Assembly: GCA_030710605.1 (NCBI GenBank)
Contig: CP092872.1
Span: 93,460,627-93,524,626 of the forward strand
Direction of reading: 5' to 3'
Length of the DNA stretch: 64,000 bases
From: Cordylochernes scorpioides
Taxonomy: Eukaryota > Arthropoda > Arachnida > Pseudoscorpiones > Chernetidae
The position numbers and the translations under genes are program-made. Positions within the stretch are counted from its first letter, which is position 1; every line of letters starts with the position of its first letter. Positions 6,828-64,000 of this stretch are shown here, in pieces. The notes beneath the pieces were generated by a model. It made no database searches, was not told the origin of the DNA, and saw nothing but the letters and a program-made list of their open reading frames with translations.

Positions 6828-7156
6828 GGCCCCTGCGCAAGGATGACACGCAAAATCGTGAAGCGTTCCTGTGGGCTCAGAAAGAACTCGACTTATATGC
6901 TAATGGTGACGTCAGAGAGAGCGGAATTTTTGGGCATCCGTGTCCAATCAAGGACTGGCCTGCTCGATTTTTTATGTTCTATTAGCTTCTTGGACAATGT
7001 CAATGATCTGTTATTCGACCTTACTGGATGCACAGCCCTTCTTTTCCGGTGGTAGATTTGATTGAGCATCATCTTGAAGTTACATCAGGCTTGGTGTTTC
7101 CATATAAAACATTCGTATGTACAACATTGTGTGTGCATAACAAATATAGTACGACA
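6547..7156. mobile_element. LTR-like 610-bp block between two Helitrons
   Basis: The block begins TGTTGTAATG and ends TAGTACGACA, so its ends are TG/CA with a short inverted match (TGTTGT versus ACGACA). It is flanked on both sides by TATATA, which could be a target duplication but is ambiguous in TA-rich DNA. Its GC content is much higher than the surroundings. A U6 snRNA fragment sits inside at 6791-6869. A solo LTR is one reading; a chimeric retrocopy is another. Only the part from 6932 on recurs, at 40766-40990. Confidence 0.42.
6791..6869 (+). pseudogene. U6 snRNA-derived fragment
   Basis: 79 nt match the conserved U6 core from TATACTAAAATTGG through the ACAGAGA box, GATTAGCATGG (AGC triad), the CCCTGCGCAAGGATGACACG region and GAAGCGTTCC. 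The only clear change is CAAAATCG for the usual CAAATTCG. The first 20 or so nt, with the 5' stem-loop, are absent and no terminal T run follows, so it is not a normal Pol III U6 gene. It is embedded in the LTR-like block, which suggests a template-switch chimera made during reverse transcription. Confidence 0.9.
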
Positions 7157-7173
7157 TATATATATATCGTATA

Positions 7174-8013
7174 CTAGCGGATGTGCCCGGCTTCGCCCGG
7201 GTTTTACCCGAGTGAATGTTTGTCTAACGAACATTTGTTAAAACAATTCTCTATAAACTTATAAAACGTACTCGGCTTCGCCCGGGTTTTACCCGAGTGA
7301 ATGTTTGTCTAACGAACATTTGCTAAAACAATTCTCTATAAACTTATAAAACGTACTCGGCTTCGCCCGGGGTTTTACCCGAGTAAAGGTTTGTCTAGCG
7401 AACATTTGTTAAAACAATTCTCTAAAAACTTATTTAAAAAAAAAAAAGATATATTTTGATAATTTGAAACTCGTAAATTTGAATCTCTCGATAAAGTGAA
7501 CATTTTTTCCCGGTCCCTGTGTGCCGTGTCATCCTGAATTTTGTCTTTCCTAATTTTCTACATTAGAAAATCATAGTTTTATCTAGTGAACATTTTTTCC
7601 TGGTCCCTTGAAAAATACTCGATAAGTTGAATAAAATCAATATTAATTGGTTCCCTCGGTAATTGGAAGTTAAAGGAATAGTATCTTCGCCTTGGAATTG
7701 TATCATTATTCTTGTTTCAAATAAATTGCCGTGTCATTCTGAGATAATCTTACTTTTGATAAATAATATTTAAGATAACAAACTTAGTGATAAGAAAACT
7801 TGTTATCATCGTCACAATGGGGGCGCTGCTTGCGAGTTAAATCTACAAATCTGCAAATAACTCTAAGGATATTCAAGATATTCATGAAATTATTTTTCAA
7901 AGACCTTCCCGGTGATATACCTAATAATATCCCAAAATTTCACGGCGATTGGATGTATGGTTTTTGAATCTATAGAGTACAGACAGACAGACATTCAATT
8001 TTATATATATAGA
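7174..8013 (-). mobile_element. non-autonomous Helitron, family 1, with triplicated 3' end
   Basis: The minus-strand 3' CTAG lies at 7174-7177 and the 5' TC at 8012-8013, followed on that strand by an AT leader and ATTGAATGTCTGTCTGTCTG. The 3' subterminal hairpin module (CGGCTTCGCCCGGG...) and the neighbouring AACGAACATTTG segment occur three times in tandem at 7174-7425, so the element is longer than its relative at 5840-6524. Confidence 0.92.
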
Positions 8014-8620
8014 TTTACTCTTCATTGTTGGCTTTTTATCTTACATTCATTCTTCATTGTTGGCTTTTTATATTACATTTACTATTCATTGTTGGCTTTT
8101 TATCTTACATTCACTCTTCATTGTTGGCTTTTTATCTTACATTCATTATTCATTGTTGGCTTTTTATATTACATTCACTCTTCATTGTTGGCATTTTATC
8201 TTACATTCATTCTTCATTGTTGGCTTTTTATATTACATTTACTCTTCATTCTTGGCTTTTTATCTTACATTCACTCTTCATTGTTGGCTTTTTATATCAT
8301 ATTTACTCTTCATTGTTGGCTTTTTATCTTGCATTCATTCTTCATTGTTGGCTTTTTATATTATATTTACTCTTCATTGTTGGCTTTTTATCTTACATTT
8401 ATTCTTCATTGTTGGCTTTTTATATTACATTTACTCTTTATTGTTGGCTTTTTATCTTACATTTATTCTTCATTGTTGGCTTTTTATATTACATTTACTC
8501 TTTATTGTTGGCTTTTTATCTTACATTCATTCTTCATTGTTGGCTTTTATATCATATTTACTCTTCATTGTTGGCTTTTTATCTTACATTCATTCTTCAT
8601 TGTTGGCTTTTTATATTATA
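8014..8620. repeat. 32-bp minisatellite, array 1 (about 19 units)
   Basis: Units contain TTCATTGTTGGCTTTTTAT. Two subtypes largely alternate (ATCTTACATTCATTC and ATATTACATTTACTC), giving a 64-bp higher-order unit. The array starts exactly at the 5' terminus of the Helitron at 7174-8013. The long overlapping open frames across it exist because the unit lacks stop codons; they are not genes. Confidence 0.97.
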
Positions 8621-8695
8621 TTCTGACCAAAATCTATCTGTGAACTTCACACAGTGAACTTCACACAGACAGAATAAGGCAATTATATAAGTAGA
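8621..8695. other. spacer between minisatellite arrays, possible Helitron 5' relic
   Basis: The spacer contains two GTGAACTTCACACAG repeats and a segment whose reverse complement reads TCTACTTATATAATTGCC then TTATTCTGTCTGTGTG. This looks like another Helitron 5' terminus, again directly abutting the second array. Confidence 0.4.
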
Positions 8696-9081
8696 TTTAC
8701 TCTTCTTTGTTGGCTTTTTATCTTACATTCATTCTTCATTGTTGGCTTTTTATATTACATTTACTATTCATTGTTGGCTTTTTATCTTACATTCACTCTT
8801 CATTGTTGGCTTTTTATCTTACATTCATTCTTCATTGTTGGCTTTTTATATTACATTTACTATTCTTTGTTGGCTTTTTATCTTACATTCACTCTTCATT
8901 GTTGGCTTTTCATCTTACATTTATTCTTCATTGTTGGCTTTTTATATTACATTCACTCTTCATTGTTGGCTTTTTATCTTACATTCATTCTTCATTGTTG
9001 GCTTTTTATATTACATTTACTCTTCATTGTTGGATTTTTATCTTACATTCACTTTTCATTGTTGGCTTTTTATATTATATT
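8696..9081. repeat. 32-bp minisatellite, array 2 (about 12 units)
   Basis: Same 32-bp unit and alternating subtypes as array 1. It starts with the same TTTACTCTTC junction next to the TAGA that ends the spacer. Confidence 0.97.
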
Positions 9082-9390
9082 TTTAGATTGAGATTATTAG
9101 CTAGTATGTAAAAAAATTAACTCTGTTGAAATTTAATTTTGTATTTATATATAAATAAAATTAACTCTGTTGATTTTTTTTTTTGTATTTAATCGATAAC
9201 AGCGAAGTTACGCATGTTAAAGTTAGGAAAAATATTTTGATGTTAAGCAAAACCTGCTCCATCTCGTTTTACATAAATGTTGAAAATTTGGTCGAAATTG
9301 ATGCATTGTAACGAAAGTTTTTAGCGAACACCACTTATGAAATTTCCATTTTATTAATATAGATTTTAAACTGTATGCAATTTTTGTATA

Positions 9391-9796
9391 TGTCACATAT
9401 CTTCCAAGTGTTCTGTCAGCTGGTGGCAGGGACATAGGGGAGGAAAAGCCAACGCCCAGCCCATGTGGAGCCTCCAGGGACTCTTTATAGACGACTCCTG
9501 AAAACAGGACAGGTATTGGCAGGGGGTTAGCAGATGTTCTAGAGGGTGGCCATCGGCAGGCGGCTTCGGTCTCACACACAGTCTCTCTCTCCATGTCTCG
9601 GTGATAAGCATCCAAGTTTGTGTCATGGCCTCTACCTCTGTCCCGTGGGCTGTACCCGATCACTCTCGGTGCTAACATCTAGCCCTGTCTCTGCTTCTTG
9701 TTGTCCGCGTGTGGGACGAACATCAACATTCGCCTCACGTACACGACTGCCAGTTTATCCATACATCGGCAGGATCACATTTGCAACAATATTACA
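9391..9796. mobile_element. candidate solo LTR, 406 bp
   Basis: A GC-rich insert in AT-rich DNA, starting TGTCACATATC and ending CAACAATATTACA (TGT...ACA), flanked by TATA on both sides as a possible 4-bp target duplication. It has a TATA-like CTCTTTATAGACG inside. No primer-binding site or coding region follows, so if the reading is right it is a solo LTR. Open frames across it (9223-9678 minus, 9546-9809 plus) lack recognisable domains, and one is broken by indels in copy 2. Confidence 0.45.
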
Positions 9797-9810
9797 TATA
9801 TATATATAAA

Positions 9811-9850
9811 TTGGCGAAACCCCTGTAAGGGTTCACCACTGATGAGCCAT
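9811..9850 (+). mobile_element. family B hammerhead-like module
   Basis: TTGGCGAAACCCC, a short loop, GGGTTCACCACTGATGAGCC. The hairpin AACCC/GGGTT is perfect. It recurs at 43639-43678. Confidence 0.6.
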
Positions 9851-10084
9851 GCCTTCCCAATAAAAACTTCTAACAGAGAAAAGGAATTTTCGCAAATATA
9901 TACAAATAGAATTAAAAACTCTTTGAATTATTTATCTACACACAGAAATCATTACTACTACTATACTAAGAATCCTTAACTAATTATAATAATTATAAGA
10001 TTAGTTAAGACAATAGTCTTCAGGCAAACAGTCACTCAGGGGAAGAACTAAGACAGAGCTTAGCGATTCAACACTCTATAGGAA

Positions 10085-10475
10085 CTATATATTTAACATA
10101 TATATATATTATAAATTTAAAAAATGATTTTTTTCTGCTGATTTTTGAATAACTTGAGGATTATACTATGTTAATGCAATCGTGGTTAAAAATCTTGAAA
10201 GTATGATAAAAATAGTAAAGATTAGAAATTGCTTTAATTGAGCTTATGGAATATAGAAAACATAATTTGAGAAAGATATGCCTGACTTGAGGTGTAAGAA
10301 TCTAAAAAAATGAAAAACATATTTACATAATGTACAAAAGATTTGAGCCGGCCATCGGGAAAAGACAACAATGAGTTTTTATAGGGGAAGTGTGACCTCT
10401 GGCGGTCGATTTAACAGAGTATTTGAATCTATGAAATATAATTTTTTAAATTATATAATATTTTAATTTAACATA
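10085..10475 (+). repeat. left member of an inverted repeat pair (about 390 bp)
   Basis: Matches 12735-13150 in opposite orientation with substantial divergence. Shared landmarks are TAATGTACAAAAGATTTGAG, GCCGGCCATCGGGA and GACCTCTGGCGGTCG. Either two independent insertions of one element, or the long inverted termini of one 3-kb element later invaded by SINEs and MITEs. Confidence 0.7.
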
Positions 10476-10942
10476 TATATATTAACTTCAACACACGATC
10501 AAATATACACAGAAACCAAATAGTATAAAACCGAGTTAATAATGAGTTAATTAGAGAAATCCACCGAAATAATTATAATAGTTATAAATATTTACAATAC
10601 ACACAAACTGTCAACAGTGAAATTCTCTCTGTTTGTCATCTAAATAACATACTTCCCAATTAGCCAACTGTTGCCAATTTTAATTATTACAAAAGAGCTA
10701 CATTGGTTTAATACAACTTAGTCTTTTGGTCTCTAATTAGATGCCTTAATTATATTATAGCGCTCTTACGTGAAATTGCACACATATTTTGATTTATATT
10801 TGCATATACATTGTTGCATAACAATTCACAGTTTTATCTATAAATGTTAGGATAAGGAACAATAATGTGTTAACTGATTGGAATTGACTTTCATGGAAGA
10901 CGGTTATTTATGTAGAAACAATGAATTAAATTGTTCTATATA

Positions 10943-11501
10943 CATTCATGGACAAAACTTGAGTGGAAAGTCTTTGATGCTACTAGTCGTCTTTTTTTTT
11001 TTTTAAGGAAACAGAGGAAATTTTGTTCACACTTCATTATCTCATGTGTCTTTAATAAAGATTACGGAAGAGCGATTGCTCGAAGCATATTATATATTTA
11101 TAATTGCATTTCATTCTGCTGTCTTCAAAGCTTTATGTCCATAGTTCATCTAAAATACCCATTCTAAGAGTCTAGCATCATCATCACTATAAAAGAAAGT
11201 TCTAAAAATGCAATAAAACAGCGGTATGGTAGATTAAACTGGCGAAACCGCTTAGAGGGTTCACCACTGATGAGCCAGGCCCTCCCATTAATTTTTCCAT
11301 TGCAGTAAGGGCGGTAGAAATTGTTTTATTTTATTTCAAAAGAATCATATCCGTCTATAATAGTTTCGAATTTTCATAACAGATGGCGCGTTAATGTATC
11401 ATAAAGATTATTGTGTATCAAATATCTTTCAAAGTTATTGTCTCAATCCCGATATATATGGTAAAAAGTACAACTTACTTAAGTTTTTTTCAATGAGGGT
11501 G
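10943..11501. mobile_element. Tc1/mariner-type MITE, family T, interrupted
   Basis: The ends are TA-CATTCATGGACAAAACTTGAG and CTTAAGTTTTTTTCAATGAGGGTG-TA, imperfect inverted termini with TA at the target. The outer parts align with the copy at 23506-23834. The middle (about 11225-11370) is a family B insertion. Confidence 0.7.
11225..11370 (+). mobile_element. family B unit nested in the family T MITE
   Basis: The best-preserved family B copy: CTGGCGAAACC, loop, GGGTTCACCACTGATGAGCC, then CATTGCAGTAAGGGCGGTAG. The stem-II-like TGGC/GCCA pair is intact. Its absence from the sibling MITE at 23506-23834 shows that it inserted later. Confidence 0.65.
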
Positions 11502-11611
11502 TATATAAATAATGCATAAATATAATAATGTATTGTTTTAATGCTTTTTTTTAAGGTGAGATATGCTTCTTTTGGTAAATGAGTATCATCCTCCCTCTCA
11601 ACAATAAAAGT

Positions 11612-11910
11612 CTCTTCTTCTTTTTTATCTCAAAGCCATGATAATCATGGTGGGTAGTTAGCGACTGCTTTTTCTGTAAGCGCACCACATGTCTACATAT
11701 GTGAAAAGCAGTTCGACTTTGCACTTACAAATGTGCCAGAGCCCCGTTTGGTTACTTGCACTCGCTGGTGGGGTTGGACTTTTGCAAGAATCGGGGGCCA
11801 TTGGAACTTTTTTTTTTTTTTAACAGAAAAAAAGTGTCCAATGCGGGAATCGAACCCGGGTCGTAGTGGTCGAAAACCAAACGGTTTAACCAGCCTTCCA
11901 CCGACCCCCA
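11612..11910 (-). mobile_element. SINE-A, full length, with 13-bp target duplication
   Basis: Minus-strand copy with a well-preserved tRNA-like head at the right end (B box GGGTTCGATTCCC; A-box region TGGAAGGCTGG). It is flanked by a perfect 13-bp duplication CAACAATAAAAGT at 11599-11611 and 11911-11923. This is the youngest-looking SINE copy and fixes the element boundaries. Confidence 0.93.
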
Positions 11911-12185
11911 CAACAATAAAAGTAATATATATCAATGTTAAAAGTGGGAATTCTAGAATATTTTTGCGTTGTAATACTCTGTTGTAATTTGTATATTGTT
12001 GTAGTATTGTCTATGCTAATTTACATATCTGCATATATATCACAGCTTTGTTGGATTGTTGTTGGCTAGCGTTTATTGGATAGGGCAGGTCGGCGTGAGC
12101 TGCTGGTGTAAATATAATTTTATCTCTTGTCTTTCCTTATTGTTTATTAATACCTTTAAGTAATAAAGGATCTTCATAAATGTGT

Positions 12186-12351
12186 GCAAGTAACCAAACG
12201 GGGCTCTGGCACATTTGTAAGTGCAAAGTCGAACTGATTTCCACATGTGTAGACATGTGTTGCACTTACAGTAAAAGCAGTCGCCTACTTCTACCCACCA
12301 TGATTATCATGGCCTGTACAACGTGTACTAGGGATAAGCAAAAAAAAAAAA
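12186..12351 (+). mobile_element. SINE-A, 5'-truncated copy
   Basis: Starts in the SINE body at GCAAGTAACCAAACGGGGCT and runs through GTGTAGACATGTG and the CATGATTATCATGG palindrome to GGGATAAGC plus an A run. The tRNA head is absent. It lies opposite in orientation to the SINE at 11612. Confidence 0.88.
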
Positions 12352-12359
12352 TTATCACA

Positions 12360-12734
12360 GCCATCTTTCTTTTTTACGAATCTATAATTTTCTCCCAACA
12401 ATAAACAATGTTACCAATGTACATAGAGTACATGTGTAGACAATATGGAAGAATCCACAAAAGCTCTATAACATCACTCAGATGTATGGCAGTACAAGAT
12501 GGTAGGATTATCTGCAGGAAACATTTCTTCTTCACAAAGCCTTTTGTCTGGGGATTTGGCAAAGTTTACAAACTCCTTGGGGAGGATTTTCCTTTTTAAT
12601 TGAAAACCTCAAAATATTAACTCACTCTGTGGTAAATTCGCAGATAAATCCAGTTATTGCATTTATATTGCAGTAACAAACTGAAAAATGTTGTATCAGA
12701 TAAATATATAACAATAACGTGCACATATAACAAT
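12360..12734. other. moderate-complexity stretch, no gene called
   Basis: A 63-codon plus-strand frame (12408-12599) looks mildly protein-like, but the second copy of the duplication has TGA in place of an AGA codon within it, so it is not a conserved gene. Confidence 0.4.
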
Positions 12735-13150
12735 ATGGTGATATATCCATATATATGTTATATAAAAATATTATTTTAAATTATAATTTCATAGATTCAA
12801 AAACATTGCTAAATCGACCGCCAGAGGTCACTCTTCCCCTATAAAAACTCGTTGTTGTTTTATCCCAATGGCCGGCTCAAAACCTTTGTACATTATGTAA
12901 ATAATCTTTTGTTTTTCCTTTATTCTACTCGCCTTAAACCAGGCATTACTTTTATTATATTATGTTTTTCATATATATTCCTTAGCTCAAATAAAGAAAT
13001 CTCTGATCAAGACTTTATATTTTCAAGATTATTATTCAACCACGACTGCGCCACCATAGCTTAATTCTCAAGATAACCAAAATCAAGATAATCACAACAA
13101 TTCCAAAATCAACAGAAAATCTCATTTCTATTCATTTTTATAAAATATAT
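12735..13150 (-). repeat. right member of the inverted repeat pair
   Basis: Reverse-oriented relative of 10085-10475, sharing CGACCGCCAGAGGTCA, the TATAAAAACTCGTTG region and GGCCGGCTC. Confidence 0.7.
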
Positions 13151-13410
13151 ATATAATAAATAAAACTATAATGTATAAATGTCTCTTTAAAAAAACTAAA
13201 TAAAACAAATTTCTATTTTTTTTTCATCGCAGTAAGAACAATAGAAAGTGTTGTGTTTTATTTGGTTTTTAAAAAAGAAAGATTCGTACTTTATGTTTTT
13301 ATTCCGTAACTATGTAAATATGTCTGGAAAATTATTCTTTGTTGATATGAAACATGACAATTTTTAATAAGGAAGTAAGGAATGAAATTTTTCGACTTAT
13401 AGTACATATA

Positions 13411-13726
13411 GTATAGACCATGGGCCATGATAATCATGGTGTATTGTAGTTTGAGACTGCTTTTACTATAAATACACCACATGTCTATACATCCAGAAGG
13501 CAGTTTGACTTTTGTGCTTACAAGTGTGCCAGAGCCCCGTTTGTTTACTTGCAGATTCTAGTAGGGCTGGACCTTATTAATATAGACCATGGGCCATGAT
13601 AATCATGGTGTATTGTAGTTTGAGACTGCTATTACTATAAATACACCACATGTCTATACATCCAGAAAGCAGTTAGACTTTTGCACTTACAAGTGTGCCA
13701 GAGCTCCGTTTGTTTACTTACAGTTT
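13411..13726 (-). repeat. tandemly duplicated SINE-A fragments, unit about 171 bp
   Basis: Two consecutive diverged SINE-A 3' segments both begin with ATAGACCATGGGCCATGATA, at about 13412 and 13583. Each contains the SINE landmarks ACACCACATGTCTA and GTGCCAGAGC. The second runs directly into the 821-bp tandem block. Confidence 0.8.
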
Positions 13727-14548
13727 CTAGTGGGGCTGGACTTTTTCAAAATTCGGAGGCCATTAGAGCTTTTTTTTTTTGTTTGTTAAAAAAAATAAGT
13801 GCGCAATAGTGTCTGTGACTGACGAAAATGTACTTTTTATACCTCTCGTCCCCAACCCCCTATATACCATTTGTATTTTTGAAATTCATCTATTAATCAA
13901 ACCCAGACGCGATATTGAAGTATTTGCGCCTATTACAGAAGAAACAAAGAAAAACAACAAATTAAAACTTAGAATGAAATATTTACAAACTTACATGTAT
14001 TAATCGACAGAATTCATAAAATGTATATAAACAAAGTGGTTAAGATGTAAGAGAGATATATTGTTAATCTTTCAAACTTTAATAATAATGTGTTATTCTT
14101 GAAAAGAAAATAATAAAATGATACTTTTTATGCAAAATTTATGCTTATTAATTAATATTAATAAAACTATGGAAGACTATGGACAATATCTATACATGGG
14201 GAGCATTAAATTTAACTTATTGACAACAATGGGCTAAAATGGAACACCTAATGGTAAAGAATAACATATGCAACAATGGTCAAATTTAAATAAAAATAAA
14301 TTATAATATCATAGAGAATATTCAAAAATTAATAATTTTAACGAAAATGTATTATAAAATATAAGCGCGCGTTTATTAATTTATTTTTATAAATTTGAAA
14401 TTTAAAAATAAATTTATTAATTTGAAAATATTGTGTTAAAAATACAGTTAAACCTGCCTATAGCGCCCCCTCTAAATAGCGCCTTTCTCTCTATAGCGCC
14501 CGATTTTAAACATTAAAATGTAAACATTTTACATTAAAAGTGATCTGT
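13727..14548. repeat. tandem duplication unit 1 (822 bp)
   Basis: Begins CTAGTGGGGCTGGAC (SINE-A derived) and ends within a pogo-type MITE at GATCTGT. It is almost identical to the next 821 bp; the only difference I noticed is one T in a homopolymer. It contains a short open frame repeated in unit 2, but no recognisable protein. Confidence 0.95.
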
Positions 14549-15369
14549 CTAGTGGGGCTGGACTTTTTCAAAATTCGGAGGCCATTAGAGCTTTTTTTTT
14601 TGTTTGTTAAAAAAAATAAGTGCGCAATAGTGTCTGTGACTGACGAAAATGTACTTTTTATACCTCTCGTCCCCAACCCCCTATATACCATTTGTATTTT
14701 TGAAATTCATCTATTAATCAAACCCAGACGCGATATTGAAGTATTTGCGCCTATTACAGAAGAAACAAAGAAAAACAACAAATTAAAACTTAGAATGAAA
14801 TATTTACAAACTTACATGTATTAATCGACAGAATTCATAAAATGTATATAAACAAAGTGGTTAAGATGTAAGAGAGATATATTGTTAATCTTTCAAACTT
14901 TAATAATAATGTGTTATTCTTGAAAAGAAAATAATAAAATGATACTTTTTATGCAAAATTTATGCTTATTAATTAATATTAATAAAACTATGGAAGACTA
15001 TGGACAATATCTATACATGGGGAGCATTAAATTTAACTTATTGACAACAATGGGCTAAAATGGAACACCTAATGGTAAAGAATAACATATGCAACAATGG
15101 TCAAATTTAAATAAAAATAAATTATAATATCATAGAGAATATTCAAAAATTAATAATTTTAACGAAAATGTATTATAAAATATAAGCGCGCGTTTATTAA
15201 TTTATTTTTATAAATTTGAAATTTAAAAATAAATTTATTAATTTGAAAATATTGTGTTAAAAATACAGTTAAACCTGCCTATAGCGCCCCCTCTAAATAG
15301 CGCCTTTCTCTCTATAGCGCCCGATTTTAAACATTAAAATGTAAACATTTTACATTAAAAGTGATCTGT
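14549..15369. repeat. tandem duplication unit 2 (821 bp)
   Basis: Second copy of the block. Where unit 1 jumps from GATCTGT to CTAGTGGGG, unit 2 continues GATCTGTCTATAGCACAC into the rest of the MITE, so this side carries the ancestral junction. CTA at the breakpoint is shared microhomology. Confidence 0.95.
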
Positions 15370-15443
15370 CTATAGCACACCCTCTCTATAGCACCCTATT
15401 TTGGTGAGTCCCAAGAGGGGGGCGCTATAGACAGGTTTAGCTG
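15266..15443. mobile_element. pogo-type MITE 1 (178 bp)
   Basis: Inverted termini CAGTTAAACCTGCCTATAGC and its near-complement GCTATAGACAGGTTTAGCTG, with TA on both sides (15264-15265, 15444-15445). A truncated second left end is at 14445-14548 because of the tandem duplication. Confidence 0.9.
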
Positions 15444-15861
15444 TATCATTTATTAACATTCTCTATATAATTAAGTAAAATTATCCAAAATATCTCCTAG
15501 CAGATTGTAGGAATTATATTGAATCATTTAATTCAAAATATACCACATGATACATTCCATTTCCAAAATACACGATTGCCATTGTATTTGGAAAACGTTT
15601 TAATATAATACTAATATCCAATATGTAAAATAGGTATTATTTCGAAAGAAAGATTTTAACCGTAAAAAATAAATAAATACAGTTGATTAGAACAACAAGA
15701 AATTAGTTAGCTATTTACGAAATGTAGAAAAAAATGGATGTAATATTATGTAAATAAAATGTAAATTGCTATTTAAAATAAGTTTAAAACCAAATGGTTC
15801 TATAGGTTAAATGTTTTTCTATACTTTACCTGAACCATAGTATTAGGTGATACTGTTTAAA
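15444..15861. other. AT-rich stretch, no feature recognised
   Basis: Low-complexity AT sequence between the MITE and the 27-bp minisatellite. Confidence 0.5.
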
Positions 15862-16193
15862 TATGGTCAAGTGTAAACGCCACGTCCATGTGGCCAAGTG
15901 TAGATTCCACGTCGAAATGGCCAAACGTAGACACCATGTCTATATGGCCAAGCGTAGACACCGTGTCTATATGGCCAAGCGTAGACACCGTGTCTATATG
16001 GCCAAGCGTAGACACCATGTCTATATGGCAAAGCGTTGACACCGTGTCTATATGGCCAAGCGTAGACACCGTGTCTATATGGCCAAGCATAGACGCCATG
16101 TCCATATGGCCAAACGTAGACACCGTGTCTATATGGCCAAGCATAGACGCCATGTCCATATGGCCAAACGTAGACACCATGCCTATATGGCCA
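15862..16193. repeat. 27-bp minisatellite, about 12 units
   Basis: Unit is ATGGCCAAGCGTAGACACCG plus TGTCTAT, with a near-palindromic TAGACAC/GTGTCTA core. Because 27 is divisible by 3, open frames run through on both strands, repeating 9-residue motifs such as GHIDTVSTL or WPYRHGVYA. I see no initiation context or non-repeat domain, so I do not call a protein. Confidence 0.96.
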
Positions 16194-17880
16194 AAAAAAA
16201 CCCACTTATTTAATTACAATATACAGTAGGAAATATTGGAAACCAATTTATGTTTATAACACAACAACAGCCTTTAGTTAAGACATTAAATTGGTATGCT
16301 AAAAAAATATCTTTAAAAAAATTGGTACCAAGATCCTGAAATAAATAAATTAAAAAAAAATAACGAAAAGGTCATGTTTATTCCGATAGATGGCGCAAGC
16401 CATCGACAACCTTCAACTACACGTTCAGAAGATACTTCTTTTTTCTTAATTATTTTTTAAGTTTTAAGGTATGTTTAGAAAAATCTAGAAAAAGAGAGAG
16501 TGGTTTAATCTATATGTAAATATAAAGAGATTTGAATATGTCATTGTGGAGGTTCAGAGGTAGAAAGTCAGCTCGCTCCGACCCCTATCACCCCCCACAA
16601 AGGCGCTATCTCCCCCACAGCTTTTCCCGGAAACCGATATGATTCATAGCTTCCAAAATTTCCCTATGAACTCCACTGGGAAATCAAACGGGATGATATC
16701 ATTCGAAACACTTTAAATACATAGAAAAGCCATTTTAAATACATATTACCATTTTAAAAGCAATAACCAGACTGTCTATGAGTCAAACTAAAAGCTTTTT
16801 TTTAAGCTGTGTTTTTTTTTTCTATTGTACAATAATAATTCTTTAAACATTTCAGAGGTCATATTTTAAAAGCCGTTTTTAAACCTTTTCACTTACCCAT
16901 GTTTCCATTTTGTTAATATAAATAATAAATTAAGAGTTTTGGCCTATTTATTTTACAGTTTTTTCTCGAATTGAAAATAATATTCTAATACTCTTGTGAA
17001 AGAATAATAAAAATATTTAAATTATAAACGCATTTTTCAGTTTTATATTATCAAATCTAAAATTATATATTTATAGAATCAAACGATAATTTTAATATTG
17101 GCGGGAAAATATATATTAGCATACGATTACATTTAGGCAAATATATTTGATAATTTTTTTAGTGCATGTTGATAAAAAATATTTTAAAAATCTCCAATAT
17201 ATATATATATTCTATAAAAATTTAAAAAACGTATATTTCAATATAAAATTGATGTTCTTTATATATATTTGTACATTTTTAAAAATATATATAAAGCAAT
17301 ATATATATTTATATATAGAAACAGTAAAAAAAAAGAAATCTAAAATATACTTTGTTATTTCCATAGAAAATACAGGTATATTTTCAATATATTTCCTATT
17401 TTAAAATAACATATTTATTTTACAAATAGAGTGCATACATTTTAAAAATAAAAAAGTCTCCTTTTTTAATTCCTTTTTAGCAAAATAAATAACAAATTCA
17501 ATTATATATTTTATATTTTGGAAATGTTATTTCAGAGCACAACTAGTTCAATTTATTTGGCACAATTTAAATCAAACGAAATGCGCACCGAGTATATCAA
17601 TTCTGTGAGCGTTTGGAAAAGAAAATAAATTGGTCTACGATTTTTTTTTTCTGTATTTGACCGCGTTCAATAGATCGAATATATTTCGTATTGGTTTATT
17701 GGAAATTAGAACTTGAGCAAATTTGTTTTTAATTGATTTTAAACAGAAAAATATTGATTTCAAATTATTTAGAAAATGTCAAGTGTAAGGTTTTAAATTG
17801 CTCCTTTTTTAGCTTAATAATCTATTGTAATACATTTACCGAAAATGATTAATATGTAAATATAATTTGATATAATAATA
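16194..17880. other. AT-rich region with a GC-richer patch
   Basis: At 16375-16440 it has a TTTATTCCGATAGATGGCGC motif shared with the inverted-repeat element at 19764-20180. At 16538-16642 a 34-codon open frame starting MSLWRFRGRKSARS lies in GC-richer DNA; I do not recognise it. The rest, including the 85-codon frame at 17147-17404, is low-complexity AT. Confidence 0.4.
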
Positions 17881-18238
17881 TCTATATATATAAAAATCAA
17901 TGTTTGTATGTTTGTTTGTTTGTATGTCCGGTATACAAATTCGCAGTAGTTCACTAATTCAAACCAGAATTTCCATACATAGGTAAAGAAATACGGGGAA
18001 GACGATAGGCTATTTTAAAAAATGTATAAATCAATTATTAAAACTATATATTCAAATTATTCTACTTAGCTCACGAACAGCGCCCTCTATCAAAGATTAG
18101 ATTATATTATGCTGATGCAAACAAATATATAATGCTAATAACAAACAATTATTTTAAAAAATCTTATCTAAATATATATCACTCGGGTAGATATGCACAC
18201 GGGTCAATCCCGGGGCGAAGCCCGGGTCACCCGTCTAG
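17881..18238 (+). mobile_element. complete non-autonomous Helitron, family 2 (358 bp)
   Basis: 5' TCTATATATA (TC terminus at 17881), 3' hairpin with arms around CCCGGGGCGAAGCCCGGG, and terminal CTAG at 18235-18238. Flanking bases are A (17880) and T (18239), as expected for A|T insertion. No coding capacity. Confidence 0.94.
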
Positions 18239-18429
18239 TCTTTAATAAAATAACGGATATGTATTAAGATATTTTATGTAATGTGTTATACTTCTGTTTG
18301 AATAATGTGTATTTATGAGGTTTATTTATGCATGGTATAGTTTCAATCAATTTTTATTTAGCTTTCAGCTTACAATATAGTACATAGCGGTTCAATGATA
18401 TTGTAGCAAAGTATTTATTATTTTATTTA

Positions 18430-18600
18430 ACAGAGTATCATTTTTATGTTTATATTTTGCTACTCTGTAAACTTCCCTCATTGCTTATCTTTTGTTTATC
18501 ATTTATAGTTTGTTCTTGCCTTAAATAAATTGCTGTGAAATCCTGATGTTTGTCTTTCCTAATTTTCCACGTGGCAATATATTTAACGATTTTTAAAATC
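18430..18600 (-). mobile_element. Helitron-related fragment
   Basis: Reverse-oriented relative of 3187-3375, sharing CCACGTGG, AAAATTAGGAAAGACAAAC-type sequence, AAGGCAAGAACAAACTAT and CAGAGTA. Confidence 0.6.
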
Positions 18601-19025
18601 GAGAGGAAACTTACCATTTTTATCAATAGATAAAAATCAACTTCATTGCAATGTAAAAAAAAAAGAAATTAATTTGACATTACTTATTTAATTTATAAAT
18701 AAAAGATACATTTTAAAAAGCTTTTATTTGAATGCACCAAAAAGGAAAAATATATATATATTTTGACTTTTGTCATTGAGCAATTAGGTGTATCTGAGTG
18801 AAAATAAAAGCGGCGGGGAATGATCATCATGAATTTCGAACCGAATGTGATTTAATACAAGTTTAATACTTGTATATAGCAACTAATTACAATTTTACAA
18901 GTATTTACTAAATTATAATCTTCCCCCGCAGTGGAAGCAAGTTAAATAAAAGTTTCTAAAAATCGACGTTTTTCTAAATAAGGTGAACATCATTTGTTAA
19001 AAATGTCAACTATACAAAAAAAGAA

Positions 19026-19095
19026 GTCGGTGGACAAGTGGGTAACACCTTCGATTCCCGACAGTCATAATCTGGGATTGAATCCCGCGTTAACA
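19026..19095 (+). pseudogene. tRNA-like sequence (SINE head or tRNA relic)
   Basis: GTCGGTGGACAAGTGGGTAA carries an A-box-like TGGACAAGTGG, and GGGATTGAATCCCGCG a degenerate B box. It resembles the SINE-A head but lacks the SINE body. Confidence 0.55.
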
Positions 19096-19165
19096 TTATG
19101 TTTAATATGTGAATAACCTTTACATTCACTAGTTTCAATTATCATAAACTAGGTTGCTCTTGTTG

Positions 19166-19307
19166 AGCGGTACCTAATAAAGTTATTTTGGTACCAACAA
19201 ATATATTTATGAATTACAAAGTAGATTTAGAAGGAGTACAAAGAGCCAAAAGGTATCCATTTAAATCTAAAATACTAATAATAACTTTTTAAAATGTTGA
19301 TATTAAT
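19166..19307 (+). repeat. 142-bp direct repeat, left copy
   Basis: Almost identical to 19587-19728 (start AGCGGTACCTAATAAAGTTA versus AGCGGTACCTAGTAAAGTTA). The two are separated by 279 bp of different sequence, so the arrangement resembles a miniature LTR element (TRIM) or a 421-bp-period duplication. Confidence 0.9.
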
Positions 19308-19586
19308 TCTTTTAAATGAGCAAAATATGCGTTAAAATGCGTCATATAGTTACGAGAAGATGATATTCATGTATCAAAATTGGCACCTCTCCCTTTAAAA
19401 ATGCAATAAAACATTTGGTGTATCAATCAGAGTACATTGATTTTGATTACAAAAAAATTGGTATTTCAGACGAAACTATATCATATCGTCTTATTACATA
19501 TTTAATATTTACGAACTAAAATAAATAGGTAAAAAATAGTAGAAAATATGATATTGTACTGGGATAAGAATCATAAATAAATGTTC

Positions 19587-19728
19587 AGCGGTACCTAGTA
19601 AAGTTATTTTGGAACCGACAAATATATTTATGAATTACAAAGTAGATTTAGAAGGAGTACAAAGAGCCAAAAGGTATCCATTTAAATCTAAAATACTAAT
19701 AATAACTTTTTAAAATGTTGATATTAAT
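19587..19728 (+). repeat. 142-bp direct repeat, right copy
   Basis: Right partner of 19166-19307. No clear TG/CA ends or primer-binding site are visible, so the LTR reading is unproven. Confidence 0.9.
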
Positions 19729-19763
19729 GTATTTAGAAAAAAGGGCATCTCCTTATCGGGCAA

Positions 19764-20180
19764 AACTGAAAGTTGCTGATGGTTTTCGCCATCTATCGAA
19801 ATAAATATAAACTATTCGTTAATTTTTTTTATTATTCCAGAAGTTGTCAAATGCCCTTTTTTTATTAATGAAGAAAAGCTAACCTCGTACGCGTTTAGGG
19901 TTGTTGGTCCTCATCATTTTGGTACTAGCTCTATCTCAGCGAACAAAGGAACTGGTCTTTGAGGCATCCTGAGAAATCAAGAAACAGGTATTTAAGGCCG
20001 GAAGGGCGTGTACAGCTTGCACCATACTGATGAGGGCCAACAGCCCGAAACGCGTACGTGGTTAGTTTTTCTTGATTAGTCAAGAATGGGTATTTGGTCA
20101 AATTGGTAACAAAAAAAAAATCAACGATTAGTCGATATTTATTCCGATGGATGGCGCAAGCCATCAGAAAACTTTTAGTT
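19764..20180. mobile_element. inverted-repeat element carrying two hammerhead-like modules
   Basis: The ends are imperfect inverted repeats of about 45 bp (AACTGAAAGTTGCTGATGG... and ...CCATCAGAAAACTTTTAGTT). Inside, CTAACCTCGTACGCGTTTAG (19879 on) and its inverted partner ending ACGCGTACGTGGTTAG (to 20065) face each other. A related fragment lies at 16375-16440. I read it as a Penelope-like terminal unit in fold-back form. Confidence 0.6.
20021..20065 (+). ncRNA. candidate minimal hammerhead ribozyme
   Basis: The sequence shows CTGATGA (20027-20033), a stem II GGGC/GCCC around CAACA, then GAAA (20047-20050), CGCG and TA. This is the full conserved core in type I order. Helix III would be very short (A-U, C-G, two-base loop), and helix I would pair ACCA with TGGT with imperfect inner pairs. 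Very short helix III is the known form in Penelope-like elements. Cleavage would follow the A in GTA. The inverted partner at 19879-19921 has ATGATGA and CTAAA instead and is likely dead. Confidence 0.5.
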
Positions 20181-20266
20181 GCACGCACAGCAGATGTATT
20201 TTTCTTAATTTATCCACCAGTACAATTTCACTTTTGTACTATTTTTCTAAATCAATAATATTGTTA

Positions 20267-20438
20267 CAGTCGAACTTGGATAATTCGAACCCCAAGGGAC
20301 CATAAAAAAATTCGAATTATCCAAAAATTCGAATTAAAAACGGAAATTATATATATAGGAAATTCTAGGGACCAAGATAAATATTCGAATTAAAGAGGTT
20401 TTCGAATTAAAGAAGTTCGAATTATCCAAGTTCTACTG
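20267..20438. mobile_element. pogo-type MITE 2 (172 bp)
   Basis: Inverted ends CAGTCGAACTTGGATAATTC and GAATTATCCAAGTTCTACTG, with TA on both sides. Confidence 0.9.
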
Positions 20439-20949
20439 TATTAAACTTTAATTTTTTTATACCTTGAAATTGGCTTATGCCCTTTTAACTGAAATATTAT
20501 TCAATTTAATTAATATTACATCCAATATATATTTGTCTTTTATATAAAGGAAACTTTAAAACGTTATTTTATAATAAAAAGCTTTATATATATGCACAGA
20601 GAAATAATATATAAATGATCTATATTAAAAGATATATATACATATATATTTAAACTCGAAAATGTCTTAATGTGTCATTTTTAATCAGCAGATTTCAGCT
20701 TTAAAGTGAATAAATTTTAAATAGCTCCAAATTTTGTTAAATATTCATGAAGCCTTATGATAAATTATTTCTCATTTATTTAAATTCAAATATTTCAAAT
20801 TTATAATCAAATATCGCGCGCCTCTTTTAATAAAAGATTTAATATAATATATGTCAAACCCTACTATATATTAATTGAAAAGCCCTGTACGATTTATAAA
20901 TGAATAAAATAAAGCATCAAGGGCTGCGTATCTTTATTATAATAAATAT

Positions 20950-20988
20950 ATACGAGCTTTCGGGCACATACGCCCTTCTACAGGAATT
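20950..20988 (-). mobile_element. Penelope-like hammerhead-type motif, family S
   Basis: On the minus strand: CCTGTAGAAGGGCG, loop, GCCCGAAAGCTCG. Stem II is intact and the left core strand is CTGTAGA instead of CTGATGA. The mariner at 21031 inserted just beside it. Confidence 0.5.
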
Positions 20989-21030
20989 AATGAAATAATA
21001 ATCCAACTAGTTTGAAATAAGCTTTATATA

Positions 21031-22334
21031 CAGGGTGTACCAGGTAAATTGGGACTAACTTTGACAGTCCATAAAACAAAAACTACTTGAGATTAAAAAC
21101 TTGTTTTTTTTTTCATTACGTAGCCATATTCATGTAAAATGCAACAGTACATGTGTGCGCAGTGTAGTGATGAAGAGTAACCGAGAATTTGAAAATCGAG
21201 CTGCCATCATCGTTGCTCTGCGCGCCGGAAGGAGCCCCAAAGAGATAGTGGATTTTCTTAAGTTGCCCAAAACCACTATTTATCGTGTCAAGAAGCAGTT
21301 TGATGAGGCCGACAGTAACAAAGAGGGGATAGCTACAAGGAAAAAGCACTCGCGTCGATCGGACAGGGTAAGAGGCGAAGAATTTGTCAAAAATGTCAAG
21401 GAGAAGATTGATGGAAACCCTGGGAAGAGCATGAGGGCCATAGCCAAGGAAATGGACGTTGGCTCTATGACAATTGTCAGAACTATCCATGAGGACCTTG
21501 GTCTCAAGTCTTATGCCCTTCGGAAAGGTCAGTTGCTGACTGAGAATATGAAGAATAACAGAAAAGGAAAGGCTGCTGCCCTCCTCAACAACCTGAAACA
21601 CGACTCTTTTGGCATGCTAAGGTTCTTCTCTGACGAAAAGAACTTTGACGTGGACCAAAAGGTAAATCCCAGGAATGATCGCTGGATCTGTAAAGACCCC
21701 TCAGAGATACCTGTCGTGATGCACACGAAATTTCCTGCCTCCGTAATGGTCCTTGGCGTTATCAGCAGTGAAGGTGATGTCATGCCTCCCCATTTCTTTG
21801 AGAAGGGCCTTAGGATGAACGCTGACACCTACATCAATGTTCTGGAGACCGTTGTGAAGCCTTGGATGGACATGGTGGCCGCAGGAAGGAAGTATGTCTT
21901 CCAACAGGACTCAGCTCCAGCCCATAAGGCAAAAAAGACACAATCGTGGCTGACACTTAACGTCCCTAGTCACTGGGGTCCTGATATTTGGCCCCCTAAC
22001 TCTCCAGATTGCAATCCCCTCGACTACTATGCATGGGGCGTTGTTGAGAGAGATGTCAACAAAGCTCCTCATACCACCATCCAGTCTGTCAAGAAAGCAG
22101 TTCACACGGTGATGACCCAAATGGACAAGGTCATCGTCGCCAAGGCCTGTGCTTCATTCCGCACTCGCCTCGAGACTGTTGTAGCTAATAATGGAAACTT
22201 CATTGAATAAATAAAAACTATATCCTTTTATCTACTACTGTGTCAAATTTCATTCGGATATTTTAATTTTTACTTGCAAAAAATTTCAGTTAAAATACCA
22301 TTGTTGAAATTCCCAATTTACCTGGTACACCCTG
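21031..22334 (+). mobile_element. complete mariner-like transposon (1304 bp)
   Basis: 24-bp perfect inverted ends, CAGGGTGTACCAGGTAAATT then GGGA, mirrored at 22311-22334. They are flanked by TA on both sides (21029-21030, 22335-22336). One uninterrupted transposase gene fills the interior. Perfect ends and an intact frame indicate recent activity. Confidence 0.97.
21170..22210 (+). CDS. mariner-family DD37D transposase, apparently intact
   Basis: Encodes a 346-residue cut-and-paste transposase that would bind the element's inverted ends in the nucleus and excise and reinsert it at TA. I start at the ATG at 21170 (MKSNREFENRAAIIVALRAG), which opens the N-terminal helix-turn-helix; the upstream ATG at 21101 would add 23 atypical residues. 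A first helix-turn-helix spans about residues 10-45 and a second about 88-110. Catalytic residues are D155 (FSDEKNF), D247 (QQDSAPAH) and D285 (NSPDCNPLDYYAWG), with 37 residues between the last two, hence DD37D. No frameshift or stop interrupts it and the length is normal for the family. Its balanced base composition contrasts with the AT-rich surroundings, which fits a recent arrival. DD37D defines the maT-type branch of mariner; I cannot place it further without a tree. Confidence 0.96.
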   Translation: MKSNREFENRAAIIVALRAGRSPKEIVDFLKLPKTTIYRVKKQFDEADSNKEGIATRKKHSRRSDRVRGEEFVKNVKEKIDGNPGKSMRAIAKEMDVGSMTIVRTIHEDLGLKSYALRKGQLLTENMKNNRKGKAAALLNNLKHDSFGMLRFFSDEKNFDVDQKVNPRNDRWICKDPSEIPVVMHTKFPASVMVLGVISSEGDVMPPHFFEKGLRMNADTYINVLETVVKPWMDMVAAGRKYVFQQDSAPAHKAKKTQSWLTLNVPSHWGPDIWPPNSPDCNPLDYYAWGVVERDVNKAPHTTIQSVKKAVHTVMTQMDKVIVAKACASFRTRLETVVANNGNFIE

Positions 22335-22336
22335 TA

Positions 22337-23834: not shown

Positions 23835-24127
23835 TATTTGGCTATGGTCAAAATCGACCAATCGACCGATTGAACACCAGAAATAGTTCAATTTAGGCCA
23901 CTTTTTTCTTGTATTTTTTTTACAAACCAATTATAATTGATCAATAGAAAAACGAAGAAAATATTCAATGCTAGTTTTTTCTGGGGAAAGCAAAGGTTCT
24001 TCATTATATTAAAATACTTTAAAAGGGTCAACATATGTTACTCTAATATACATATATTTATTTCTGTAAACCAACAACATTTCTTATATATACATATATT
24101 GAAGATTGAGCAATCCATAATTAAATC

Positions 24128-25700: not shown

Positions 25701-25716
25701 TGTTTCTAAGCAACCG

Positions 25717-30530: not shown

Positions 30531-30532
30531 TA

Positions 30533-54846: not shown

Positions 54847-56150
54847 CAGGGTGTACCAGGTAAATTGGGACTAACTTTGACAGTCCATAAAACAAAAACT
54901 ACTTGAGATTAAAAACTTGTTTTTTTTTTCATTACGTAGCCATATTCATGTAAAATGCAACAGTACATGTGTGCGCAGTGTAGTGATGAAGAGTAACCGA
55001 GAATTTGAAAATCGAGCTGCCATCATCGTTGCTCTGCGCGCCGGAAGGAGCCCCAAAGAGATAGTGGATTTTCTTAAGTTGCCCAAAACCACTATTTATC
55101 GTGTCAAGAAGCAGTTTGATGAGGCCGACAGTAACAAAGAGGGGATAGCTACAAGGAAAAAGCACTCGCGTCGATCGGACAGGGTAAGAGGCGAAGAATT
55201 TGTCAAAAATGTCAAGGAGAAGATTGATGGAAACCCTGGGAAGAGCATGAGGGCCATAGCCAAGGAAATGGACGTTGGCTCTATGACAATTGTCAGAACT
55301 ATCCATGAGGACCTTGGTCTCAAGTCTTATGCCCTTCGGAAAGGTCAGTTGCTGACTGAGAATATGAAGAATAACAGAAAAGGAAAGGCTGCTGCCCTCC
55401 TCAACAACCTGAAACACGACTCTTTTGGCATGCTAAGGTTCTTCTCTGACGAAAAGAACTTTGACGTGGACCAAAAGGTAAATCCCAGGAATGATCGCTG
55501 GATCTGTAAAGACCCCTCAGAGATACCTGTCGTGATGCACACGAAATTTCCTGCCTCCGTAATGGTCCTTGGCGTTATCAGCAGTGAAGGTGATGTCATG
55601 CCTCCCCATTTCTTTGAGAAGGGCCTTAGGATGAACGCTGACACCTACATCAATGTTCTGGAGACCGTTGTGAAGCCTTGGATGGACATGGTGGCCGCAG
55701 GAAGGAAGTATGTCTTCCAACAGGACTCAGCTCCAGCCCATAAGGCAAAAAAGACACAATCGTGGCTGACACTTAACGTCCCTAGTCACTGGGGTCCTGA
55801 TATTTGGCCCCCTAACTCTCCAGATTGCAATCCCCTCGACTACTATGCATGGGGCGTTGTTGAGAGAGATGTCAACAAAGCTCCTCATACCACCATCCAG
55901 TCTGTCAAGAAAGCAGTTCACACGGTGATGACCCAAATGGACAAGGTCATCGTCGCCAAGGCCTGTGCTTCATTCCGCACTCGCCTCGAGACTGTTGTAG
56001 CTAATAATGGAAACTTCATTGAATAAATAAAAACTATATCCTTTTATCTACTACTGTGTCAAATTTCATTCGGATATTTTAATTTTTACTTGCAAAAAAT
56101 TTCAGTTAAAATACCATTGTTGAAATTCCCAATTTACCTGGTACACCCTG
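54847..56150 (+). mobile_element. complete mariner-like transposon, copy 2
   Basis: Counterpart of 21031-22334 with the same TA flanks, so it was duplicated with its surroundings and not independently inserted. Confidence 0.97.
54986..56026 (+). CDS. mariner DD37D transposase, copy 2
   Basis: Encodes the same 346-residue protein as 21170-22210, with no amino-acid difference: D155, D247 and D285 are present and the frame is uninterrupted. As flanks and TA target match copy 1, this is not a second transposition event. It is either the other allele or the tandem partner of the same locus. Confidence 0.96.
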   Translation: MKSNREFENRAAIIVALRAGRSPKEIVDFLKLPKTTIYRVKKQFDEADSNKEGIATRKKHSRRSDRVRGEEFVKNVKEKIDGNPGKSMRAIAKEMDVGSMTIVRTIHEDLGLKSYALRKGQLLTENMKNNRKGKAAALLNNLKHDSFGMLRFFSDEKNFDVDQKVNPRNDRWICKDPSEIPVVMHTKFPASVMVLGVISSEGDVMPPHFFEKGLRMNADTYINVLETVVKPWMDMVAAGRKYVFQQDSAPAHKAKKTQSWLTLNVPSHWGPDIWPPNSPDCNPLDYYAWGVVERDVNKAPHTTIQSVKKAVHTVMTQMDKVIVAKACASFRTRLETVVANNGNFIE

Positions 56151-61457: not shown

Positions 61458-61657
61458 TAATATTATAAAATAAATGAAGCTTCCACGGTTAAGTTTCTTG
61501 TGCAACTTTTTATTTTCAAGCTTTCGGATATTGTATTTATTATTAAGTTGTTAAAGTGATAATCCTGTTGAAGGACTGACAAGTCCGAAAGCTTGAAAAT
61601 AAAAAGTTGGACAAGAAACTTAATCCTGGAAGCTTTATTTATTTTATAATAAATAAT
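61458..61657. mobile_element. family S fold-back, copy 2
   Basis: Counterpart of 27642-27841. Confidence 0.85.
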
Positions 61658-63442
61658 AGGTATGTTTAAGATGTTAAATCCTCTTTTCAATATTTATATT
61701 TTCATATATTTCTAATTTGACTCTATAAGTATTTCGGCCCTTTTAATCGGCGGAACTATTGAAGTAAAAATATTGTTCATATTCATCGAACATTAAATCT
61801 AGACTATATGTATAAAAAGTATATTATTTTATTTATATAAATATATAACGACAAAATTCATTTCAATTTACTTTTAGAAGTCTATTTTCTATAATTTATA
61901 GAGTTAACGTATATAAAAAATCTTAAATTTATACCATTATAGAGCTAAAATTTGATACCTATATTGTCTGTGAAAAATTAATATAAAGAATAACATATTT
62001 GACCCCTGACTATCTATTTGCTTTACTGATACTAAAATGACTAATAAATAAAGTTAGAGTATTGATGTATCTCTATTTATTGATAAATATTTATATATTT
62101 ATTTATCTCTTAATAATTCATCATATGTTGACTACTGAAATAACATTTGAATGTATAATCACGCGAAAATAAAAATATATATATGGAAGTCATTTCTTAA
62201 AAGTTTAGACAAAAGTTATTTTACCTGAGATATTTAAAGTTTGCTAAGGATTTATATTTTTCAAATATATGCAAATATATGAGAAAGCGATTTTCTAAAA
62301 TAACAAGAAAAGATATTTATACATAGCGTATTATTTCAAAATTCAAAACATTAACGAATTTTTGCTAAAGGTTGCCGCAATAGAGTATACGAAATTTCTA
62401 AGATGGCGGCGTACCATGAAATATCGGCTGCAATTTATTTTAGACATTTATTTTCACCACAAGTGGGGAGTCTTTTGATATTAATTTAAACAAAGAAATA
62501 TATTTGAAAATAGATAGGATTTAAAATAATGAATTCATTCTATAATAAATATTAGTAATAAAAAATACAATAAATAAAATTCTATTTAAAAAAATAATAA
62601 TATCGTCATATATTATTTTTCAATACATTTTAATGTTATTATATAACTTTTAAAAATAAGCTCTGAAAATAAATATTTTAAAAGGACCAAAATATCTATT
62701 AAACCTAGCCGCGTCTTTAAAAATATTTTTAAAACGAAAATTAAATTGAAGCGATATTATATTTTCTAACAAATTCAATTTTAATTATGATAAACAGCTC
62801 AGAATGATATTTTCTTTATAGAAAATGTGTTTTTTTTTTCTCCATAAGAAAATAAATTTGATAAGTTGAAGATTAATGGAGTTAGCAATATAGACAAATT
62901 CTAATACCAAAATGGCAATATATTTTGAAACTTAGGGAAAAAAATCCGCTTGGAACTTTAATATAATGAAAAAATATCCATTTTATTTATTTCCCTTAGG
63001 AAATGGGAGAAATGGAGGTAAAATTGTGAAAAAATATGGCGACGTTTATACAGGTCGTCGTTCCATTTAATTTTTCTTTTGTAATTCATAGAATATTATA
63101 AATCATAGAATATTCATATTTATTCTGTTATCATTTATATCCTTCTTTTTTATTTATATTGAAACTATTTTAATTATACTAAATCAATATAAAATTATTT
63201 GAATGTTTTTAAAAATATATTTATATTGTTTTTGATATAATTTAATTTAAATATAACCACAGATTTCTCGTGTCTAAGTAAACTAACTTTTTAATCGTCT
63301 GTTAAATATTCTGAAGAGATATTTAAGAGGTAATTATGAATCTTCTATAGATAGTATATAATATACAATATATATTCTGATAATTTTATTATTACTTTGT
63401 CACACGCTATTAATATTTAAAATATATATAAACACAATTTAT

Positions 63443-63535
63443 AATTAAATAGGCATATATTGGATCATAAAATAATTTATTTACTAATATTTCAGTTAGC
63501 TGAACGCCAACCTTTTTCAAGATTCAAAAACGCAT
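63443..63535 (-). mobile_element. family G unit, copy 2
   Basis: Counterpart of 29628-29720. Confidence 0.6.
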
Positions 63536-64000
63536 TTATGTAAACAGCAAACTATATATACCTTTTATCCACTATTAGTCTTTTTAATTAAAGATCTATT
63601 AATCTATAAATTAATATATTAATAAGCTATATTTTCAAATATATATTTCTAAACATATTAAAAATCAGCTAATGAGTATTATTTTGATATAATTGTGATT
63701 AAATAAAAACGAATAAGTTTAATGAATAAAAATATTCGGCATCTTTTCATAGGTCTGCCATAAAAACATATAATATATGCAAATGTATTTATATTCCTTG
63801 AAGATTTCCCTGTATATCGAGAAACGATAGCCTACTTAAATTTTCTCGGTCCATGGTCACGCAAAACTAAATTATTTTCGCCAGAGCTACGCTGAAGTAT
63901 CTATTTTTAGGTTTAATTTGGCGTGAGCGTATAAAGAAAAATATTTTAATATACTTCTAGGCCATGTTTTTGATTATAAATTAGATAGAGGTTTGTTTTT

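What the first reader, a model, noticed from the sequence alone, without database searches (positions are those of the whole stretch)
6932..64000. Direct duplication of at least 23 kb on both sides of a 100-N gap: probable false (haplotig) duplication
40766-64000 repeats 6932-30184 base for base with the same nested elements, breakpoints and mariner TA site. Copy 2 begins at the first base after a placeholder gap. Indels, mainly in homopolymers and TA runs, crowd the first 6-7 kb of copy 2 next to the contig end and almost vanish from the mariner onward. That gradient fits low consensus quality at a contig tip better than biological divergence.
Basis: partly seen in the sequence, partly recalled or inferred. 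Interest (0 to 1): 0.72.

Follow-up and report, generated by a model that had tools for sequence, protein, structure and literature searches.

The report
Redundant contig mistaken for duplication
The repeated 34 kb is most likely not a real duplication: a short, error-rich extra contig repeats the ends of two other contigs, and it shows that those two belong together although the assembly places them about one megabase apart, cutting an immune-receptor gene in two.

Summary
6932-40665 equals 40766-74493 (33,734 vs 33,728 bp, 99.70%); copy 1 ends on the last base before the 100-N gap, copy 2 starts on the first base after it. Copy 2 opens a 76,685-bp contig, "B" (40766-117450). The rest of B matches, inverted, the end of contig "D" on the same chromosome (C10:92486308-92529188, 99.22%). 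D ends at its own 100-N gap, at the base that is next to window 40665 on B. So all of B is redundant, and the ends of A and D abut exactly. A Toll gene reads in frame across D|A (666 + 47 codons), and a paralogue aligns through the join with no gap there. B and A+D differ chiefly by short indels; isolated substitutions number 11, of which 10 are transversions. That looks like sequencing error, not a second haplotype or an old duplication. Best reading: a homotype false duplication (under-collapsed contig), with a wrongly cut contig and a misoriented block of about 0.97 Mb. Known artefact class; low biological interest. No reads or Hi-C data were available.

The parts
6932..40665 (+). Copy 1: last 33,734 bases of contig A, ending on the last base before the gap
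40666..40765 (.). 100-N placeholder gap between contig A and contig B
40766..64000 (+). Copy 2 (part inside the window): start of contig B. Copy 2 goes on to 74493 and contig B to 117450, outside the window
40522..40665 (-). Last 47 codons plus stop of a Toll/TIR gene, cut by the end of contig A. The preceding 666 open codons end at G000:C10:92529188 (contig D)
21065..22207 (+). Transposase-like frame (HTH and DDE_3 matches), 381 codons open, in copy 1
54881..56023 (+). The same frame in copy 2, inside the 8.4-kb stretch without differences between the copies

Best explanation
There is one locus, not two. Contig B (40766-117450) is a redundant, poorly polished contig from the same haplotype that the assembler failed to collapse onto contig A+D. 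A and D are in truth neighbours (A's last base followed by D's last base on the other strand). They were cut apart inside a Toll exon, and the 972-kb block between the two gaps (C10:92529289-93501291) was scaffolded in the wrong orientation, with B placed beside A. Shown: full redundancy of B, the base-exact abutment of A and D on B, and the frame running through the join. Inferred: that the cut was made after contig assembly, that the block (not D) is the misoriented piece, and, least certain (perhaps 0.4), that B caused the cut. B could do so because reads that map equally well to B and A+D leave a dip in unique Hi-C coverage over B's span, where a scaffolder may break contigs.
For: (1) The repeat meets both sides of the gap to the base. 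(2) The remaining 42,957 bp of B match contig D, inverted, in one alignment; D ends at a 100-N gap at exactly the base adjacent to A's end on B, and D runs on past B's right tip without a gap in the 5.3 kb held there. Two separate contig ends coinciding to the base is not expected from a real duplication. (3) The Toll frame: 666 open codons up to D's last base, continued in frame by 47 codons and a stop in A. The paralogue L021 aligns through the join with no gap at it (nearest gap 18 residues before); L022 and L023 also align through it, their nearest gap being 1 residue, four residues before the join. (4) Nature of the differences: 7+23 mismatches against 82+200 gap openings, the two BLAST runs having different gap costs; 11 isolated substitutions, 1 transition and 10 transversions; 133 of 226 single-event indels in homopolymer runs of 3 or more. 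(5) B's Toll is broken into several frames where D is open for 666 codons; at both differences in the last 60 bases of A, A keeps the frame and B has a stop. (6) Controls: the contig ends not covered by B (start of the block at 92529289, start of the next contig at window 117551) are matched at full length only by themselves among the scored candidates (lists capped), whereas pieces of A/B and of B/D have two full-length matches. (7) Published marks of homotype false duplications: copies separated by a gap, differing consensus quality, lack of haplotype variants (PMC8081667, PMC9516828, passages seen).
Against: No reads, depth, k-mer counts or Hi-C map could be examined, so the artefact is inferred from sequence alone. 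A and D are not error-free: in an 826-bp tandem repeat where four units can vote, B is the odd one out at 2 of 3 sites and A at 1 of 3, and D's Toll copy changes frame twice upstream. The excess of bases in B over A at repeat offsets 22-30 kb (18 clusters against 5) is not explained, nor is the 8.4-kb stretch without differences, except by assuming uneven polishing. The Pfam TIR match did not extend over the join. The causal link from B to the cut is a hypothesis.
Confidence: 0.9

Rival explanations
1. Haplotig (heterotype false duplication): B is the other parental haplotype, left in the primary assembly.
For: B is contained in the primary sequence and sits next to it across a gap, as haplotigs do.
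Against: 11 isolated substitutions in 76.7 kb, 1 of 11 a transition; an 8.4-kb stretch without any difference; frame breaks in B where D is open. Real alleles differ mainly by substitutions (general knowledge).
Confidence: 0.06
2. A true, very recent tandem duplication of 33.7 kb, with the assembly broken exactly at the junction.
For: The geometry copy 1 | gap | copy 2 alone would also fit.
Against: B's remainder is itself a copy of another contig end, and the A and D ends abut to the base within a coding frame. A real duplication would have to involve two places 0.97 Mb apart, both ending exactly at assembly gaps. The differences are error-like.
Confidence: 0.02
3. A heterozygous inversion of about 0.97 Mb with a breakpoint inside the Toll gene: B carries one arrangement, the A...D placement the other.
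For: Flipping C10:92529289-93501291 alone would restore the A|D adjacency seen in B.
Against: No sequenced base crosses either breakpoint in the assembled arrangement; both are 100-N gaps. A and D abut with no base lost or gained, and the assembled arrangement breaks the gene. B has few haplotype-type variants.
Confidence: 0.02

Closest known systems
Homotype false duplication, under-collapsed sequence type (Rhie et al. 2021, PMC8081667; Ko et al. 2022, PMC9516828; passages seen)
   Same: Same locus assembled twice; copies split by an assembly gap; one copy of poorer consensus quality; hardly any haplotype-type variants in the sequence; gene content falsely duplicated.
   Different: Here the redundant contig bridges two contig ends that the scaffold keeps 0.97 Mb apart, so it also exposes a wrong cut and a probable misorientation.
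Homotype false duplication by dovetail overlap at contig boundaries (same sources)
   Same: Direct repeat with a gap between, starting and ending at the contig tips.
   Different: B is wholly contained in A+D rather than only overlapping A, and D continues beyond it.
Scaffold inversion or wrong contig break by Hi-C scaffolders (YaHS PMC9848053, instaGRAAL PMC7386250; passages seen)
   Same: YaHS breaks contigs at positions lacking Hi-C coverage; flipped bins and relocations are described errors of instaGRAAL.
   Different: Which scaffolder made this assembly is unknown. The cut lies directly after a GATC, as a tool that works in restriction fragments could leave, but this is a single case seen after the fact.

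Membership tests
Homotype false duplication | Assembly gap between the copies | tested here: met
   40666-40765, 100 N, flush with both copies
Homotype false duplication | No haplotype-specific variants in the reads | tested here: inconclusive
   Sequence proxy only: 11 isolated substitutions, 1 transition and 10 transversions, in 76.7 kb. No reads were available.
Homotype false duplication | Differing consensus quality between copies | tested here: met
   B's Toll is broken into several frames, D's is open for 666 codons; 133 of 226 single-event indels lie in homopolymer runs of 3 or more
Homotype false duplication | Read depth below haploid level or k-mer copy-number anomaly | not testable with these tools
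   No reads held
Heterotype false duplication (haplotig) | Substitution-rich allelic divergence between the copies | tested here: not met
   30 BLAST mismatches against 282 gap openings; 11 isolated substitutions
Heterotype false duplication (haplotig) | Haplotype k-mers at half depth | not testable with these tools
   No reads held
True segmental or tandem duplication | A sequenced junction between the copies | tested here: not met
   Only Ns at 40666-40765
Scaffold misorientation | An adjacency supported by contiguous sequence that the scaffold contradicts | tested here: met
   B and the Toll frame join A's end to D's end; the scaffold puts them 972 kb apart
Scaffold misorientation | Hi-C contact pattern of an inversion | not testable with these tools
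   No Hi-C data held

The most novel reading that the evidence does not exclude
A real heterozygous inversion of about 0.97 Mb, with one breakpoint in the TIR-coding exon of a Toll receptor gene, segregates in this animal; contig B records the uninverted arrangement and the scaffold the inverted one.
Probability: 0.02. Interest if true: 0.5.

Novelty: not a real feature. Interest (0 to 1): 0.15.

Why it matters
It matters for users of this assembly. About 77 kb, with at least one transposase-like frame, is counted twice. One Toll gene is present as a better-preserved fragment at 92.53 Mb, a separate tail at 93.50 Mb and a frame-broken second copy at 93.53 Mb. A block of about 0.97 Mb is probably backwards. 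It also shows how a small redundant contig can reveal, and may cause, a larger scaffold error: checking whether a short gap-flanked contig matches two distant contig ends would find such cases.

Tried and rejected
Rejected: a simple dovetail overlap of A and B. This was my reading, because the differences looked U-shaped towards both tips; it fell when the rest of B proved redundant with D.

Rejected: decay confined to a contig tip. B differs from A+D over most of its 76.7 kb, with clean patches.

Uninformative: Pfam TIR on the joined protein did not extend over the join (PF01582 profile 2-92 of 179 with or without the 47 A-side residues; the 47 alone match nothing). The paralogue alignment did.

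Uninformative: the gap after B (117451-117550) shows no near-identical overlap between B and the next contig over the 6.4 kb held; the matches are short and repeat-like, the longest 511 bp at 92%.

Limits: the MAFFT-based census misaligns tandem arrays near 42.0-42.9, 49.8 and 87.0 kb (paired large indels that cancel), so its total of 277 clusters is approximate; BLAST figures are quoted for rates. The count of 11 isolated substitutions left out 170 further substitution columns of that census that lie within 20 bp of another difference; BLAST counts 30 mismatches in all. The species, assembler and scaffolder are unknown. The GATC observation (cut directly after GATC; sites 1 per 526 bp) was made after the fact and is weak. 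One paper search found nothing.

Full report
What was checked. The window is G000:C10:93460627-93524626 of a 2.62-Gb genome in 24 chromosome-scale sequences. It holds one gap, 40666-40765, of 100 N. Self-alignment gives 6932-30184 = 40766-64000 at 99.73%. With neighbouring sequence added the repeat is 6932-40665 = 40766-74493, 33,778 columns, 99.70%, 7 mismatches, 82 gap openings. The first copy ends on the last base before the gap and the second starts on the first base after it. A 1-kb piece has two full-length matches in the genome, these two; the other listed rows are partial, and only the best 40 of 6894 candidates were scored. A query across 6932 matches the second place only from base 6932 on.

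What contig B is. B runs from 40766 to 117450 (76,685 bp), where the next 100-N gap lies. Right of 74493 it holds a Toll gene on the minus strand: leucine-rich repeats and a TIR domain. Solved structures matched by D's 666-codon frame include a TIR domain-containing protein (top row) and Toll-like receptors. A genome search found a second, nearly identical Toll locus on the same chromosome at 92.53 Mb, inverted. Its match to B stops exactly at window 74494, where that locus, contig D, meets a 100-N gap at 92529189-92529288. Fetching D showed one alignment over all the rest of B: 74494-117450 to 92529188-92486308, 43,076 columns, 99.22%, 23 mismatches, 200 gap openings. D continues past B's right tip without a gap in the 5.3 kb held there. 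B is therefore wholly redundant: its left 33.7 kb with the end of A and its right 43 kb with the end of D.

A and D are neighbours. On B, A's last base and D's last base are adjacent, with nothing lost or overlapping. The Toll frame supports it without B: D's last 666 codons are open to its final base, and A continues in the same frame with 47 codons and a stop. The paralogue at C10:96.13 Mb (L021, open frame of 1199 codons) aligns through this join with no gap at it; its nearest gap is 18 residues before. Two paralogues on C5 (L022, L023) also align through it, their nearest gap being 1 residue, four residues before the join. The Pfam TIR model did not extend over the join and so says nothing. 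In the scaffold the two ends are 972 kb apart (92529188 and 93501291). Flipping the block 92529289-93501291 would bring them together, so a misorientation is the simplest reading; the sequence cannot say whether the block or D is the piece to turn.

Nature of the differences. Over all of B the differences are mostly short indels: 243 of 277 clusters in the MAFFT census, which is approximate in tandem arrays. Of 226 single-event indels, 133 lie in homopolymer runs of at least 3. There are 11 substitutions more than 20 bp from any other difference, 1 transition and 10 transversions; 170 substitution columns nearer to another difference were left out of this count, many of them in misaligned arrays, and BLAST counts 30 mismatches in all. 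This is unlike alleles or old duplicates. In the Toll gene B changes frame repeatedly while D is open for 666 codons; D itself changes frame twice further upstream. In the last 60 bases of A, A keeps the frame and B has a stop. In an 826-bp tandem repeat where four units can be compared, B is the odd one out at 2 of 3 sites and A at 1 of 3. So B is the poorer copy, but A and D are not perfect. The clean stretch of 8.4 kb (54287-62652) and the patchiness elsewhere suggest uneven polishing (inference).

Mechanism. Best reading: an under-collapsed contig from error-rich reads of the same haplotype, the 'homotype' false duplication of Rhie et al. 2021 (PMC8081667, passages) and Ko et al. 2022 (PMC9516828, passages). 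Between them they name gaps between copies, differing consensus quality and absence of haplotype k-mers as marks; the k-mer mark could not be tested. A further step is proposed but not shown. The cut between A and D lies inside B's span, 33.7 kb from one end and 43 kb from the other, in coding sequence that occurs at full length only in B and D among the scored matches. Reads that map equally to B and A+D would lower unique Hi-C coverage there, and YaHS, for one, breaks contigs at positions lacking Hi-C coverage (PMC9848053, passages). The cut lies directly after a GATC (sites 1 per 526 bp), which a tool working in restriction fragments could leave (instaGRAAL, PMC7386250, passages); one case is weak evidence. 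By contrast the other end of the block starts in a satellite of about 41 bp found on many chromosomes, a natural place for a contig to end.

Rivals. A haplotig is disfavoured by the small number of allele-like substitutions. A true tandem duplication is disfavoured because B joins two contig ends that both stop at gaps to the base. A heterozygous inversion is not excluded, but no sequenced base supports the assembled arrangement.

Verdict. It is, on sequence evidence, an assembly artefact of a known class with a linked scaffold error. Interest is low for biology and practical for users of the assembly.

Noticed in passing
G000:C10:92529289-93501291 (window coordinate 40665 is its right end): Block of about 972 kb that is probably misoriented in the scaffold, since its right end abuts the contig end at 92529188 on contig B.
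   Followed up: partly
window -2774 to 1164 (continues left of the window): Tandem array of a 54-bp unit, about 97% alike; a similar stretch of 835 bp lies inverted at 105842-106676.
   Followed up: no
13726-15372 and its copy 47545-49194: A unit of about 826 bp in two tandem copies that differ at one place in copy 1 (99.9%), perhaps a young duplication or a further artefact.
   Followed up: partly
G000:C5:25.36-25.65 Mb and 30.18-30.56 Mb; also C16 and C20: Clusters of TIR/Toll-like frames: 31 of the 49 match rows of the genome search lie on C5, 7 on C16, 3 on C20. Real expansion or further false copies was not tested.
   Followed up: no
G000:C10:92529289 onward: Contig start in a satellite of about 41 bp that recurs on many chromosomes.
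   Followed up: no
119661-122494 (right of the window, L014:5661-8494): Reverse transcriptase and RNase H frames in the contig after B.
   Followed up: no
5842-6515 against 7353-8011: Inverted repeat, about 93.6% alike, straddling the start of the duplicated stretch. Not needed for the explanation.
   Followed up: no
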